A program made the position numbers and the translations under genes. Positions 726 through 4,885 of a DNA stretch of 33,169 bases are shown here, one piece after another. The notes under the pieces are model-generated. The model was not told where the DNA came from, did no database searches, and worked only from the letters and a program-made list of their open reading frames with translations. Source of the DNA: Deltaproteobacteria bacterium (GTDB taxonomy: Bacteria; Desulfobacterota; Dissulfuribacteria; Dissulfuribacterales; QOAL01); contig JALWNK010000071.1 in NCBI GenBank assembly GCA_026995935.1, positions 1-33,169 of the forward strand. Direction: 5' to 3'. The stretch's first letter is position 1; each line of letters opens with the position of its first letter.

Positions 726-1664
726 TTAGTCCATTTCAGCGAGCCTCAGTAGCTTCTCGTATTCTGCATCCACCCTTCTTTGGATGTACTCGATGTGCTC
801 CTCGTCCAGGTGGCGGAAGCGCCTCTGGCCCTTGAGATACTCGGTAACGGGCTTTGGCTTGGTTATCTTCCTGCTGATTATGTAACGGCCTTCAATGACC
901 TCGTAGAGGGGGAAGACCTTGGTCTCAACGGCCAGCCTGGATATCTCAATGGAACGCTCACCTGCTGAACCCCAGCCTGTTGGGCATGGAGAGTATATGT
1001 GAACGTAGGCAGGGCCCTTGACCAGGGCGGCCTTCTTGACCTTGTTCATGAGGTCAACAAAGTAGGCAGGTGAGGCAGTTGCCACATATGGAATGTTGTG
1101 GGCCACCATTATGGCCGGAACATTCTTCTTCCAGGTCACCTGTCCGAAGCTCTTTTTGCCCGGTGGGCTGGTTGTTGTCATGGCGCCGTAGGGTGTACAG
1201 CCTGAACGCTGAACTCCTGTGTTCATGTACGCCTCGTTGTCAAGGCATACGTAGAGGAAGTCATGACCCCTTTCCATGGCACCGGAGATGAACTGAAGAC
1301 CAATGTCTCCAGTGGCGCCGTCACCGCCAACCGCCAGGATATCAACATGCTTCTTTGGTATCTTGCCCTTTCTGGCAAGTACTCTCCTTGCAGACTCCAC
1401 GCCTGAGGCAACGGAGGCGGCATTCTCGAAGGCAATGTGTATCCATGGCACCTTCCAGGCGGTGTGTGGATATGGAGATGTGATGATCTCCATGCAACCC
1501 GTTGCATTACAAACTATTACATCCTTGCCAAGGGCCTTCATGACCATCCTCAGGGCAAGCACCTCGCCGCAGCCCTGGCATGCCCTGTGCCCCGATGACA
1601 AGGGTTCATCCTTTGGTAGATTCTTTGCCTTAAAGCCTTTGAATTTTTCGAATTCTGGTATCAT
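726..1664 (-). CDS. porB: Pyruvate:ferredoxin oxidoreductase, beta subunit
   Basis: This is the thiamine-diphosphate-binding subunit of the four-subunit enzyme that oxidises pyruvate and CoA to acetyl-CoA and CO2 and reduces ferredoxin. At 312 residues it has the usual PorB length. The N-terminal part carries C29-x2-C32 and C52/C57 (motifs CQGCGE and CNATGC), expected ligands of the proximal [4Fe-4S] cluster, with a further cysteine in YSPCPTGWG. The ThDP/Mg motif is GGDGATGDIG followed by the LDNEAYMNTG segment. Its ATG overlaps the porA stop by 4 bases, indicating translational coupling. The phrase ITSPYPHTAWKVPW favours pyruvate over 2-oxoglutarate as substrate, but a related 2-oxoacid cannot be excluded by sequence alone. 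Confidence 0.93.
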   Translation of the reverse strand: MIPEFEKFKGFKAKNLPKDEPLSSGHRACQGCGEVLALRMVMKALGKDVIVCNATGCMEIITSPYPHTAWKVPWIHIAFENAASVASGVESARRVLARKGKIPKKHVDILAVGGDGATGDIGLQFISGAMERGHDFLYVCLDNEAYMNTGVQRSGCTPYGAMTTTSPPGKKSFGQVTWKKNVPAIMVAHNIPYVATASPAYFVDLMNKVKKAALVKGPAYVHIYSPCPTGWGSAGERSIEISRLAVETKVFPLYEVIEGRYIISRKITKPKPVTEYLKGQRRFRHLDEEHIEYIQRRVDAEYEKLLRLAEMD

Positions 1665-2839
1665 TTTTCCCGCACCCCAATCACTTCGTAGAGTTCTCTT
1701 GGACGTTTCTTGGCAAATGCCCTTGCCTTGTCCACGATTTCTTCAAAACGTTCCACCGTTACGTCCCTTCCGCCAAGACCGGCCACGAAGCTGAATATCT
1801 TCGGTGCTCCGGGGATCTTGTAGAAGAGGGAACGCAGTTCTGCCCCAACAGGACCGCACAGGGCCCCTGGTGGCAGGCACCGGTCTATGACTGCCAGGAC
1901 CTTGGCCTTTCCTACCGCCTTTCTGAATTCCTGGCCAGGGAAGGGCCTCCACAGGCGGATTCTCAAGAGACCAACCTTCTGTCCGGCGTCCCTCATGGCA
2001 TCCACTGCAGTCATTGCGGTTTCGGAGATACTGCCCATGGTTACAAGCAGCACCTCTGCGTCTTCTGTCCTGTAGGATTCCACGGGATTGTACTTTCTTC
2101 CAAAGATTTCCTCAAACTCATCCCATGCCTTGAGGATATATCTCTTGGCCTTTTTCATTGCCTTGTCATGGGCAACCTTGGCCTCGGTGTAGACCTCAGG
2201 AATTCCAACAGGCCCCATGCTTATTGGACGCCTTGGATCAAGCTTGTAACGGGGCTTGAACGGGGGAAGGAACTTGTCCACTTCTTCCTGGTCAGGAAGC
2301 TCTATTGGCTCAATGACGTGACTCAGGGTGAAACCGTCGATGTTTACGATCATTGGCAGGGAGACGTTTCTGTCCTCTGCCACCCGGAAGGCGTGAAGTG
2401 TAAGGTCCACTGCCTCCTGGCCGTTTTCTGCAAAGGTCTGAATCCAGCCGATATCCCTTTGAACCATAATGTCCTGGTGATCATTCCAGATGCTGATTGG
2501 TGCGGACATTGCCCTGTTGGCAACCACCATCACAATGGGAAGCCTCATGGTGCTGGGGATGTAAAGGATCTCGCTCATGAGGCTGAGCCCCTGGGAGCTT
2601 GAGGAGGTAAAGGTCCTTGCCCCAGCCGCAATGGAGCCGCAGCAGCAGCTCATTGCTGCGTGTTCGCTCTCTACAGGGACGAACTCTGCATCCACTTCCC
2701 CGTTTGCCACCATCTCTGACAAATGTTCCACAATATGGGTCTGGGGTGTGATGGGGTAGGCAGGTATGACCTCTGCCCTTGCCAGACCAACTGCCTCAGC
2801 GATTGCAATCGAAACTTCTATTCCCACGCGTTTTGACAT
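1661..2839 (-). CDS. porA: Pyruvate:ferredoxin oxidoreductase, alpha subunit
   Basis: This 392-residue protein is the pyrimidine-binding (PYR) and domain-II subunit of POR. The start reads EVIPAYPITPQTHIVEHLSE, the family signature for the substrate/ThDP side. It is followed by VESEHAAMSCCCGSIAAGART, the conserved glutamate and CoA-side region, and by SSSQGLSLMSEILY. The C-terminal half matches the transketolase C-like domain (VLLVTMGSISETAMTAVD; RPFPG). It lies 4 bases after porD and overlaps porB by 4 bases, as expected for subunits made in fixed ratio. Length and order match the porGDAB arrangement known from hyperthermophiles and several anaerobic bacteria, rather than the single-chain POR of many other bacteria. 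Confidence 0.93.
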   Translation of the reverse strand: MSKRVGIEVSIAIAEAVGLARAEVIPAYPITPQTHIVEHLSEMVANGEVDAEFVPVESEHAAMSCCCGSIAAGARTFTSSSSQGLSLMSEILYIPSTMRLPIVMVVANRAMSAPISIWNDHQDIMVQRDIGWIQTFAENGQEAVDLTLHAFRVAEDRNVSLPMIVNIDGFTLSHVIEPIELPDQEEVDKFLPPFKPRYKLDPRRPISMGPVGIPEVYTEAKVAHDKAMKKAKRYILKAWDEFEEIFGRKYNPVESYRTEDAEVLLVTMGSISETAMTAVDAMRDAGQKVGLLRIRLWRPFPGQEFRKAVGKAKVLAVIDRCLPPGALCGPVGAELRSLFYKIPGAPKIFSFVAGLGGRDVTVERFEEIVDKARAFAKKRPRELYEVIGVREK

Positions 2840-2843
2840 GATA

Positions 2844-3137
2844 TTACCCCTCCTCCGGAACCATCGTTATGGCATCTTTGGGGCACTCGTGGGCGCATAT
2901 GCCACAACCCTTGCAATATTCCAAGTCCACCACAAAGTATCCATCCTCGTCCTGACTGTAAGCCATATCCGGGCAAAACACCCAGCACATGCCGCACTTG
3001 ATGCACTTTTCCTTGTCAACCACTGGCCTCTGAGAGCGCCAATCCCCGGTCCTGAAGTTCGCAGCGTTGCCAGGCTCCAGGATATGGCATCCAAAGGTTA
3101 TTGTTTTCCAGCCTACTATGGCGTCTGAATTGGCCAT
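2844..3137 (-). CDS. porD: Pyruvate:ferredoxin oxidoreductase, delta subunit (2[4Fe-4S] ferredoxin-like)
   Basis: The 97-residue protein has two classical [4Fe-4S] motifs, CIKCGMCWVFCP (about residues 43-54) and CKGCGICAHECP (about 74-85). It therefore relays electrons from the catalytic subunits to external ferredoxin. The approximately 40-residue N-terminal extension (TGDWRSQRPVVD) is the usual lead-in of PorD rather than of a free ferredoxin. The gene sits 30 bases after porG and 4 bases before porA, so it is certainly part of the operon. A start at 3137 is supported by the upstream AAGGAG-like purine run. Nothing unusual is seen. Confidence 0.93.
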   Translation of the reverse strand: MANSDAIVGWKTITFGCHILEPGNAANFRTGDWRSQRPVVDKEKCIKCGMCWVFCPDMAYSQDEDGYFVVDLEYCKGCGICAHECPKDAITMVPEEG

Positions 3138-3167: not shown

Positions 3168-3716
3168 TTATCCAGCAATTACTGTCTCGTTATAGGCCCT
3201 GTCCAATGCAGCCTTGTTTTTCTCTGCCAACCTGCCGAAACGCTTCTCAAGGGCCTCGAAAAGGGCGTCCTTGTTAACAATGCCTGTTGCCTTTAAAAGG
3301 GCCCCAAGCATGGTGGTGTTGGTGATGGGCAGGCCCAGCTCCTCAGTGGCTATCTTAGTTGCATCCACCATGGCGAGCTTGGACTTGATACCAAACTTGT
3401 CCCTGATTTCATCTTCTGAAAGCTCTGTGTTGAGAACGACAATGCCGTCATCCTTGAGTCCCTCGGCCACATTGACTAGCGCTGGAAGAGACGGATCCAG
3501 CACCATGACGATGTCCGGATGGTAGACCTTTTCCCTGGTCCTGATCTGGCTGTCGCTAACCCGGATAAATGCTGCAACCGGTGCACCCCTCCTCTCAGGG
3601 CCAAAGCTGGGGAAGGCCTGGGCATACTTTCCTTCAGCAATTGCGGCGGTAGCAACAAGCTCTGCAGAGGTAACACCTCCCTGTCCGCCTCGGCCATGAA
3701 TTCTTACTTCTTTCAT
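3168..3716 (-). CDS. porG: Pyruvate:ferredoxin oxidoreductase, gamma subunit
   Basis: The first gene of the por operon encodes a 182-residue protein that opens with KEVRIHGRGGQGGVTSAELV, the glycine-rich signature of the POR/KOR gamma domain. It continues with AQAFPSFGPERRGAPVAAFIRVSD and ends with a helical dimerisation segment. In the related complexes this domain contacts CoA and the PorA chain. The ATG at 3716 is preceded by AGGAG at 3724-3728. A promoter and a structured leader lie upstream (separate entries), so control of the whole operon probably acts ahead of this gene. Confidence 0.93.
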   Translation of the reverse strand: MKEVRIHGRGGQGGVTSAELVATAAIAEGKYAQAFPSFGPERRGAPVAAFIRVSDSQIRTREKVYHPDIVMVLDPSLPALVNVAEGLKDDGIVVLNTELSEDEIRDKFGIKSKLAMVDATKIATEELGLPITNTTMLGALLKATGIVNKDALFEALEKRFGRLAEKNKAALDRAYNETVIAG

Positions 3717-3753
3717 TGGTGATCTCCTATGTTTTGTTATGGATTTCCAACGA

Positions 3754-3834
3754 CTGGTTCACGAGTGTATGATGTGAAATGCATCATCTTGTCTTTCCTG
3801 AAGGCCGACAGATGGCCTCTTTAGGGTGAACCAG
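3754..3834 (-). ncRNA. Candidate structured 5' leader of porGDAB (three-way junction)
   Basis: In the minus-strand RNA a perfect 9-bp outer stem (CUGGUUCAC at 3834-3826 with GUGAACCAG at 3762-3754) encloses two hairpins. One has a 5-bp stem and 7-base loop (3818-3802); the other has a 6-bp stem AUGAUG/CAUCAU and 7-base loop (3787-3769). The joining segments are CCUAAAG, a 14-base purine-rich strand and ACACUC. It lies between a good promoter and the porG start, 37 bases before the ATG. It does not match any riboswitch consensus I recall. Folding is by eye only. Confidence 0.45.
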
Positions 3835-3855
3835 AATTCAAAAAAACTGCCTCAC

Positions 3856-3884
3856 TGTTTACATGCCGCCATACCCTTTGTCAA
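3856..3884 (-). promoter_or_regulatory. Candidate sigma-70-type promoter of porGDAB
   Basis: On the minus strand a perfect TTGACA (3884-3879) is followed after exactly 17 bases by TAAACA (3861-3856). The -35 box matches the consensus fully while the -10 box is weak. This predicts a start near 3849 and an untranslated leader of about 130 bases before porG. Nothing else in the 208-base gap 3717-3924 looks as promoter-like. Confidence 0.5.
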
Positions 3885-3924
3885 GAGACTTTGGCCTCAA
3901 AAGTTTGGGTGGTAACCTTGTCAC

Positions 3925-4233
3925 CTACAACTTTTTTCTTTGGATGCCTGCCTGGGAAGGATCTGCCAGCATGTATATTCTCACCTTCCTGCTGCGAGGA
4001 AATTCCCGTTTCATCATGGCCTTCAGATGGCGCTGGAGCTCCTTTGACGTGCAGGATATTTCCCGGTTCTCATAGCCCCTTTCCCTCAAAACGAAAGAGT
4101 CAGGGGATTCCTTGAGCACCGTTATGCCCCTGTTGCGCTTGTAGGATAGCATCTCAAGCCCGCTTCCTTCCTGGGCCTTTTTGAGGCTGTTTAGAACCTT
4201 TCTAAGGGCGCTTTCAATGTTTACCAGGGCCAT
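3925..4233 (-). CDS. Small basic protein of unknown function
   Basis: This 102-residue frame begins 20 bases inside the end of the DUF166-like gene, with GGAAAG a few bases before the ATG, so it is likely translated with its neighbour. The protein is rich in lysine and arginine and starts with a probable amphipathic helix (ALRKVLNSLKKAQEGSG). A central strand-like part follows (GITVLKESPDSFVLRERGYENREISC), then a basic helix (KELQRHLKAMMKREF), ending in KVRIYMLADPSQ. There is no signal peptide, membrane segment or metal motif, and only one cysteine. I do not recognise a family. The basic surface would fit nucleic acid or an acidic protein as partner, but that is a guess. Confidence 0.7.
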   Translation of the reverse strand: MALVNIESALRKVLNSLKKAQEGSGLEMLSYKRNRGITVLKESPDSFVLRERGYENREISCTSKELQRHLKAMMKREFPRSRKVRIYMLADPSQAGIQRKKL

Positions 4234-4885
4234 GGTCTTTCCTTTTAAGTGCGTTGTCTATGGCCTTTTTAAGGGCTGCCTTATGGACCTCCCCTGCAAA
4301 GTGAAGGGCGCTCTTTCCGCTTACAGGGTCAAAATCAGACGGGTCTGAAAGGCAAAGGTACTGAACACGCCTGGAAATTTCTGTTGGGGCCTTTTCTATC
4401 TCGGTACCAATGAGCTCTCGCACCACCTGATAGGTTGCCCCGCAGGAGGCAGCCCTCTTTACGCGTACGTCCGAAATCCTGCCGTCTTCTATCTCCACCT
4501 CATACTCTGGCACTCCAAATTGCTGGCCGTAGGCCCCAAGCCCCTCTTTCTTGCCAAGGCCGCAGCAGGTAAATGGGCAGATGGCACCAGGTATTTGCTG
4601 TCCTGAGGCAATAACCGGAATGCCCTTTTTGTTGCAAAGTCTTACCAGATATTCGGAAAGATCCGGGTGCTTCAGAAAGTTGAGCACAAGGTCCCCATGA
4701 AAATCCTCGCTTATGTACTCGTCAGGCTCATCAATAATGGGGGGAAGGGGTGCTTCAATGTTAAAGACCTTTGCAATTTCCATGTCCCGTCCGTAAACCT
4801 CTATCCCAGCTATCTTGTAGTCGCCTGAGCCCCTTTCCTCAAAGATGACGAGCCTTTGGGGCCGTTTTGATCTTTCCTCTGCCAT
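4214..4885 (-). CDS. DUF166-like cysteine-containing protein
   Basis: The 223-residue protein resembles the DUF166 family (PF02593) of anaerobic bacteria and methanogens, whose function I regard as unsettled; some entries carry an old thymidylate-synthase label. Visible marks are VNLFLKHPDLSEYL-like helices and an ASGQQIPGAICPFTCCGLGKK segment with C103, C107 and C108. C148 in RAASCGATYQVVREL and C178 in VQYLCLSDPSDFD follow, a spacing that could hold an Fe-S cluster or another metal. No signal peptide is present, so it is cytoplasmic. It starts 4 bases after the VWA gene and overlaps the next small gene, so all four genes from 8087 down look like one operon. Family assignment is from recall of motifs and should be treated as probable. 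Confidence 0.65.
   Translation of the reverse strand: MAEERSKRPQRLVIFEERGSGDYKIAGIEVYGRDMEIAKVFNIEAPLPPIIDEPDEYISEDFHGDLVLNFLKHPDLSEYLVRLCNKKGIPVIASGQQIPGAICPFTCCGLGKKEGLGAYGQQFGVPEYEVEIEDGRISDVRVKRAASCGATYQVVRELIGTEIEKAPTEISRRVQYLCLSDPSDFDPVSGKSALHFAGEVHKAALKKAIDNALKRKDHGPGKH

What the first reader, a model, noticed from the sequence alone, without database searches (positions are those of the whole stretch)
3717..3884. Candidate new cis-regulatory RNA in front of porGDAB
A perfect TTGACA with a 17-base spacer stands ahead of an approximately 130-base leader. In it a 9-bp perfect long-range stem encloses two hairpins, each with a 7-base loop, giving a three-way junction. The outer arms are 63 bases apart, so chance pairing of nine bases is not very likely. 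I recall no riboswitch consensus that fits; the shape is superficially like the purine riboswitch but the conserved junction bases are absent. A leader that senses a POR product or cofactor, or binds a protein, is possible.
Basis: partly seen in the sequence, partly recalled or inferred. Interest (0 to 1): 0.7.

Follow-up and report, generated by a model that had tools for sequence, protein, structure and literature searches.

The report
Folded mRNA leader hiding porG start
In one genus of uncultured deep-sea-vent bacteria, the messenger RNA for a central carbon enzyme (pyruvate:ferredoxin oxidoreductase) begins with a conserved folded leader that appears to lock up its own translation start, which suggests a local translational control of the enzyme whose trigger is not known.

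Summary
Seven of nine genomes of the genus carry the leader, once each, only before porG. In those seven the arms and the ribosome-binding block are 86-100% identical to the window's, while porG fourfold sites are 51-64% identical in five of the six comparisons. The junction folds better than shuffles in all seven (z -2.5 to -4.3). Hairpin 2 covaries (5 of 6 pairs); the outer stem is nearly invariant. The AUG is predicted almost always paired. A metabolite aptamer is unlikely: junctions and loops drift at about the neutral rate. Best reading: a genus-restricted structured 5' UTR that limits or gates porG translation by start-codon occlusion, trigger unknown (protein or ribosome rather than metabolite). 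A degenerate TGAA-N6-TTCA dyad in the 5' arm leaves a DNA-operator rival open. No Rfam match.

The parts
3879..3884 (-). -35 element TTGACA
   Evidence: TTGACAAAG kept in all g1 and g4 relatives inspected
3856..3861 (-). -10 element TAAACA (17-nt spacer); start inferred near 3848
   Evidence: TGTAAACAG conserved in genus and sister genus (one species TGTAAAGAG); no transcript data
3833..3840 (-). P0 5' strand UGAAUUCU
   Evidence: 8-bp perfect inverted repeat with 3697-3704; in RNAalifold consensus of 7 species
3827..3840 (-). TGAA-N6-TTCA dyad (TGAATTCTGGTTCA), possible DNA operator overlapping P0/P1
   Evidence: kept with diverged spacer in 12 of 13 leaders of two genera; weak match to the genome's TGAAT-N4-ATTCA sites (5.8 vs 19-26 bits)
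3826..3834 (-). P1 5' strand CUGGUUCAC, outer stem of three-way junction
   Evidence: 7 of 9 pairs invariant in 7 species
3801..3819 (-). P2, hairpin 1 (GAGGCC..GGCCUU)
   Evidence: pairs kept in 7 species, one-sided changes only
3769..3787 (-). P3, hairpin 2 (AUGAUG..CAUCAU)
   Evidence: 5 of 6 pairs with changes on both sides across 7 species
3754..3762 (-). P1 3' strand GUGAACCAG
3747..3753 (-). P4 5' strand UCGUUGG (anti-start-codon)
   Evidence: invariant in 7 species; pairs with CCAAUGA 3719-3713
3741..3743 (-). P4 UCC (anti-Shine-Dalgarno)
   Evidence: pairs with GGA 3727-3725
3724..3727 (-). Shine-Dalgarno GGAG of porG
   Evidence: sequence; partly paired in P4
3713..3719 (-). P4 3' strand CCAAUGA, contains the porG AUG (3716-3714)
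   Evidence: AUG P(unpaired) 0.07 or less in 7 species
3697..3704 (-). P0 3' strand AGAAUUCA, porG codons 5-7
   Evidence: codons 5-11 identical in 7 species
3727..3762 (-). possible 11-codon upstream ORF (GUG start, stop at the Shine-Dalgarno sequence), rival reading
   Evidence: my reading of the sequences: open in all 7 (shortened in G006), no Shine-Dalgarno sequence of its own
3168..3716 (-). porG, POR gamma subunit, first gene of porGDAB
   Evidence: NF006321 225.8 bits over cut-off 225
726..3137 (-). porD, porA, porB

Best explanation
The porGDAB mRNA starts near 3848 with a structured 5' UTR. P1 encloses hairpins P2 and P3 (three-way junction). Immediately downstream P4 pairs UCGUUGG with CCAAUGA and UCC with GGA, so the AUG and part of the Shine-Dalgarno sequence are base-paired; P0 joins the 5' end to porG codons 5-7 and closes the whole start region into one multibranched fold. 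The most likely function is control of translation initiation: the default state is closed, so POR synthesis is held low or gated, and the ribosome (standby on the U-rich 5' end) or a trans-acting RNA-binding protein opens it. Shown: conservation well above neutral, a consistent predicted fold in seven species, compensatory changes in P3. Inferred: that P0, P1 and P4 form in the cell, that they repress, and what opens them.
For: Arms and anti-start/SD block are 86-100% identical to the window in six other species; fourfold porG sites are 81% identical in the closest and 51-64% in the other five, hairpin region 53-64% in those five. RNAalifold returns P1+P2+P3+P4 without being told and P0 when the first codons are added. 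Covariation score and paired cells exceed all but 2 of 500 shuffles, pairs with double changes all but 7, and slid registers pair 27-51% against 97%. Junction z -2.5 to -4.3 in every species. AUG P(unpaired) 0.00-0.07 in all seven; shuffling the upstream part reaches 0.01 or less in 0.7%. Blocking P4 costs about 8 kcal/mol in all seven. P1 and P4, and mostly P0, persist in the model to 60 C. Codons 5-11 identical in all seven (one codon-12 change aside) against 38 of 146 degenerate aa-invariant codons overall. One copy per genome, only before porG.
Against: P0 and P4 never vary and P1 varies only at its end pairs, so they have no covariation and rest on complementarity, conservation and energy. 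G007 breaks both end pairs of P1. P3 alone is weak in several species (p 0.002-0.42). Two same-genus species (G003, G005) lack this leader and the sister genus folds no better than chance. A second identical run in porG (nt 67-98) shows that codon identity alone is not specific. The invariant block includes the unpaired P4 loop, which pairing does not explain. No RNA or expression data.
Confidence: 0.55

Rival explanations
1. Transcriptional operator: the conserved 5' box TGAATTCTGGTTCA just after the start is bound by a repressor as DNA, and the RNA fold is secondary. The same box could also carry both codes.
For: TGAA-N6-TTCA occurs in 12 of 13 leaders of two genera with different spacers (TTCTGG, CAAGTG, TTTTGA), expected 0.005 per upstream region; the genome holds an enriched TGAAT-N4-ATTCA palindrome, 16 sites against 1 control, some before sulfate-respiration genes; the porG box is the best match in the 33-kb window.
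Against: The porG box scores 5.8 bits against 19-26 for those sites. It does not explain the invariant 3' arm, the anti-AUG/anti-SD complementarity or the covariation of P3. No ArgR in the genus.
Confidence: 0.15
2. Protein-controlled translation by CsrA: a CsrA dimer bridges the two GGA motifs 20 nt apart (UUGGAAA and the Shine-Dalgarno AGGAGA) and blocks ribosomes.
For: CsrA is found in 8 of 9 genomes of the genus; both GGAs are invariant in the seven leaders; bridging is reported for sites 10-63 nt apart with an optimum above 18 nt (PMC7652899).
Against: The GGAs lie in or beside P4 stems and not in hairpin loops as CsrA prefers (PMC7652899); the ACA of the SELEX consensus is misplaced; the upstream GGA is lost in two sister-genus leaders while AAUUCC stays.
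Confidence: 0.12
3. Metabolite riboswitch: the three-way junction is an aptamer for a POR substrate, product or cofactor and P4 is its expression platform.
For: The architecture (junction followed by a start-codon sequestering hairpin) looks like a translational riboswitch.
Against: Junctions and loops are the least conserved part (0.34-0.57) while P1 is nearly invariant; no Rfam riboswitch matches; single locus, single genus.
Confidence: 0.06
4. Upstream ORF control: a GUG-started 11-codon ORF (VNQSLEIHNKT) overlapping the P1 3' arm ends at the Shine-Dalgarno sequence and couples its translation to porG.
For: Open in all seven species; in G007 the start is AUG and CAG became CAA (synonymous) although both changes break P1 pairs; G002 AAC became AAU (synonymous) (sequences).
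Against: No Shine-Dalgarno sequence before the GUG; G006 stops two codons early; other starts in hairpin 2 enter different frames in different species; G008 has two non-synonymous changes.
Confidence: 0.08
5. Passive leader: the fold only protects the mRNA 5' end or sets a constant translation rate and nothing regulates it.
For: No trigger or clear alternative conformation was found; blocking P4 gives no competing fold of similar energy.
Against: Invariance of the whole start block, unpaired loop included, is more than mere stability needs.
Confidence: 0.15

Closest known systems
Translational riboswitches with direct RBS occlusion in a three-way junction (SAM-III, preQ1-II)
   Same: Junction RNA at the 5' end of an mRNA with the ribosome-binding site drawn into pairing (reviewed in PMC10907184)
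   Different: No Rfam match; here the start site lies in a separate hairpin beside the junction; junction and loop bases are not conserved
Purine riboswitch (RF00167)
   Same: Outline of a stem enclosing two hairpins with 7-nt loops in the window
   Different: No Rfam match even at E 10; loops and junctions vary; P1, variable in purine riboswitches (from memory), is the nearly invariant part here
tisB-type structured 5' UTR with ribosome standby
   Same: Sequestered start site about 100 nt downstream of a partly unpaired 5' segment (PMC7708055)
   Different: No pseudoknot or antisense RNA identified; not related in sequence
Autogenously controlled leaders such as those of ribosomal-protein operons
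   Same: Structured leader of an operon for a protein complex that could bind a protein and hide the start site
   Different: No binding protein is known and no mimicry of another RNA was looked for or found

Membership tests
Any Rfam family (4227 models) | Covariance-model score above gathering threshold | tested here: not met
   No hit in the window at gathering; only a chance CRISPR-repeat model hit at E 4.7 on the other strand in 3600-4000
Purine riboswitch (RF00167) | Conserved junction and interacting loop nucleotides | tested here: not met
   Rfam scan; junction/loop identity 0.34-0.57 within one genus
Metabolite riboswitch in general | Conserved ligand pocket of unpaired nucleotides | tested here: not met
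   Least conserved elements are J1/2, L2, J2/3, L3, J3/1
Metabolite riboswitch in general | Ligand binding changes structure | not testable with these tools
   needs probing with ligands
RBS-occluding structured 5' UTR | Start codon and/or Shine-Dalgarno sequence base-paired in a conserved structure | tested here: met
   Predicted in all seven species; pairs are invariant, so without covariation
RBS-occluding structured 5' UTR | Covarying helices | tested here: inconclusive
   P3 5 of 6 pairs; P0, P1, P2 and P4 none
RBS-occluding structured 5' UTR | Measured effect on translation | not testable with these tools
   no expression data
CsrA target | GGA in hairpin loop, ACANGGANGU-like, CsrA in genome | tested here: inconclusive
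   CsrA in 8 of 9 genomes; GGAs invariant but partly paired
TGAAT-N4-ATTCA operator regulon of this genome | Match to the operator palindrome | tested here: not met
   5.8 bits against 19-26 for members; 15.2 in sister-genus L013

The most novel reading that the evidence does not exclude
A two-layer control element: the same 14 nt serve as a DNA operator (TGAA-N6-TTCA) linking porGDAB to a sulfate-respiration regulator and, once transcribed, as strands of P0 and P1, which with P4 lock the porG start codon.
Probability: 0.08. Interest if true: 0.65.

Novelty: new member of a known kind. Interest (0 to 1): 0.42.

Why it matters
POR joins pyruvate and acetyl-CoA metabolism to ferredoxin in anaerobes. 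My literature searches found no RNA-level control of POR. If true, this gives a defined, testable case of post-transcriptional control of POR in vent bacteria, with helices whose disruption and compensation give clear predictions. Its restriction to one uncultured genus limits its reach.

Tried and rejected
Rfam at gathering and at E 10: nothing. Covariance-model search of 46 genomes of the order: seven strong hits, all at porG; weak hits in other genera rest largely on the shared start-codon region. A homologous fold in the sister genus (GAGGG..CCCUC stem, P0 with AGACUUCAC) was considered and dropped: folding z about 0 and P0 probability 0. ArgR operator: no ArgR in the genus. Intrinsic terminator in the leader: none on this strand. 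A conserved peptide starting in hairpin 2: frames differ between species (my reading). RNA thermometer: predicted closed to 60 C, partly open at 70 C; growth temperature unknown, so not pursued. Literature: no POR leader RNA found; a large structured-RNA survey I looked for was not held.

Full report
WHAT WAS CHECKED. On the minus strand the sequence reads TTGACA (3884-3879), 17 nt, TAAACA (3861-3856), then a leader of about 132 nt from an inferred start near 3848 to the porG AUG at 3716. porG, porD, porA and porB follow at 3168-3716, 2844-3137, 1661-2839 and 726-1664.

RELATIVES. The genome is a draft genome; named relatives of its porG are Deltaproteobacteria/Thermodesulfobacteriota MAGs, several from vents or seeps by their names, and UBA5754 and a SeepSRB2 MAG fall in the same order by matching contig positions. 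From memory this points to Dissulfuribacterales; I did not confirm the name. Nine genomes of the genus are held; all have porG. Seven carry this leader; two (G003, G005; PorG 88% identical) have another leader. A covariance model found one strong copy in each of the seven, always at porG; elsewhere in 46 genomes of the order only weak hits, many again at porG starts. Pattern searches with the two conserved blocks agree.

SELECTION. Against the window, the closest species has 81% identical fourfold porG sites and the other five of this leader type 51-64%; the promoter, 5' arm and 3' arm/SD block are 86-100% identical, the hairpin region 53-64% in those five. By element (mean pairwise identity): P1 0.94, P2 0.91, P4 strands and start block 0.95-1.00, P4 loop 0.91, but J1/2 0.51, L2 0.56, J2/3 0.57, P3 0.61, L3 0.34, J3/1 0.43. 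So ends and start block are held, the inside of the junction drifts.

STRUCTURE. RNAalifold on seven leaders, with no structure given, returns P1, P2, P3 and a fourth hairpin P4: UCGUUGG with CCAAUGA (containing the AUG) and UCC with GGA of the Shine-Dalgarno sequence. With 60 nt of porG added it also returns P0, UGAAUUCU with AGAAUUCA. The junction folds better than dinucleotide shuffles in all seven (z -2.5 to -4.3). P3 has changes on both sides in 5 of 6 pairs, with G008 replacing the hairpin by ACACAC/GUGUGU in the same place; 97% of cells pair against 27-51% for slid registers, and covariation exceeds all but 2 of 500 shuffles. P1, P4 and P0 show no compensatory change because they hardly vary; they rest on complementarity, invariance and energy. 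P3 taken alone is weak in several species.

START CODON. The AUG is unpaired with probability 0.00-0.07 in all seven, against a mean of 0.28 when the upstream leader is shuffled (0.7% of shuffles reach 0.01). Forbidding P4 costs about 8 kcal/mol in each species. P1 and P4 persist at 60 C in the model. porG codons 5-11 are identical in all seven, while only 38 of 146 degenerate, amino-acid-invariant codons are; a second run at nt 67-98 is at least equally conserved, so this is supportive only. The two species with the other leader also have a largely closed AUG, by a different pairing (5' UCUUUUAUU with AAAUGAAAGA), and in them GGAAAUCC can pair either with the Shine-Dalgarno region or with UGGAUUU: the predicted best folds of the two siblings take different options.

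MECHANISM. Shown: a conserved leader under purifying selection with a consistent predicted fold and covariation in one helix. Inferred: in the cell P4 and P0 hide the start site, so porG translation is limited until something opens it. I favour ribosome standby on the U-rich 5' end or a trans-acting protein over a metabolite, because no conserved pocket exists. CsrA is present in 8 of 9 genomes and two GGA motifs are invariant, but they are partly paired; it is a lead only.

RIVAL AT THE DNA LEVEL. The 5' box contains TGAA-N6-TTCA, which recurs with other spacers in the two divergent same-genus leaders and in three of four sister-genus leaders. The genome has 16 palindromic TGAAT-N4-ATTCA sites against 1 for the reversed control, among them sites before ATP sulfurylase, a sulfite-reductase-domain protein, a DsrM-like gene by eye, and a TetR-like gene by eye; a related TGAAT-N4-GTTCA site lies before a PPDK/PEP-synthase domain gene. 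The porG box scores far below them (5.8 against 19-26 bits). An operator at this place is possible but would not explain the 3' arm, P4 or P3.

KNOWN OR NEW. No Rfam family matches and I found no paper on a POR leader RNA (the library is partial). It works like an RBS-occluding 5' UTR; it belongs to no family I could test. Hence a new member of a known kind.

INDEPENDENCE. Seven sequences of one genus, some closely related, carry the argument; they count as support, not proof.

Noticed in passing
G000 genome, e.g. L166 (C39:35009), L175 (C67:51712), L176 (C67:61371), L169 (C45:54236): TGAAT-N4-ATTCA palindromes are enriched (16 sites vs 1 control), mostly intergenic, before ATP sulfurylase, a NIR_SIR protein, a DsrM-like gene, a GATase_2 gene and a TetR-like gene: a possible sulfate-respiration/energy regulon, different from the HcpR motif TTGTGA-N6-TCACAA of Desulfovibrio (PMC545781).
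   Followed up: partly
L008 and L010, leader upstream of porG: Two same-genus species have an unrelated leader with mutually exclusive pairings (AAAATCCA/TGGATTTT versus TGGATTT/AAATCCA next to the Shine-Dalgarno region); the predicted folds of the siblings choose different ones.
   Followed up: partly
L009, L011, L012, L013 leaders: The sister genus has its own conserved leader (GAGGG..CCCT, GTGAATTTT, AAWTCCMAAAA) without excess folding energy.
   Followed up: partly
window 3619-3650: porG nt 67-98 is identical in all seven species (32-nt run), more than codon constraint elsewhere in the gene; no explanation sought.
   Followed up: no
window 4214-4885 (-): DUF166 family (seleno)protein DfsP, two genes upstream of porG; here an open frame without an in-frame TGA.
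   Followed up: no
porG upstream regions across the order (L015-L046): A TTGACAA..GTTAACA-like promoter core recurs before porG in many families although leaders differ in length and sequence.
   Followed up: no
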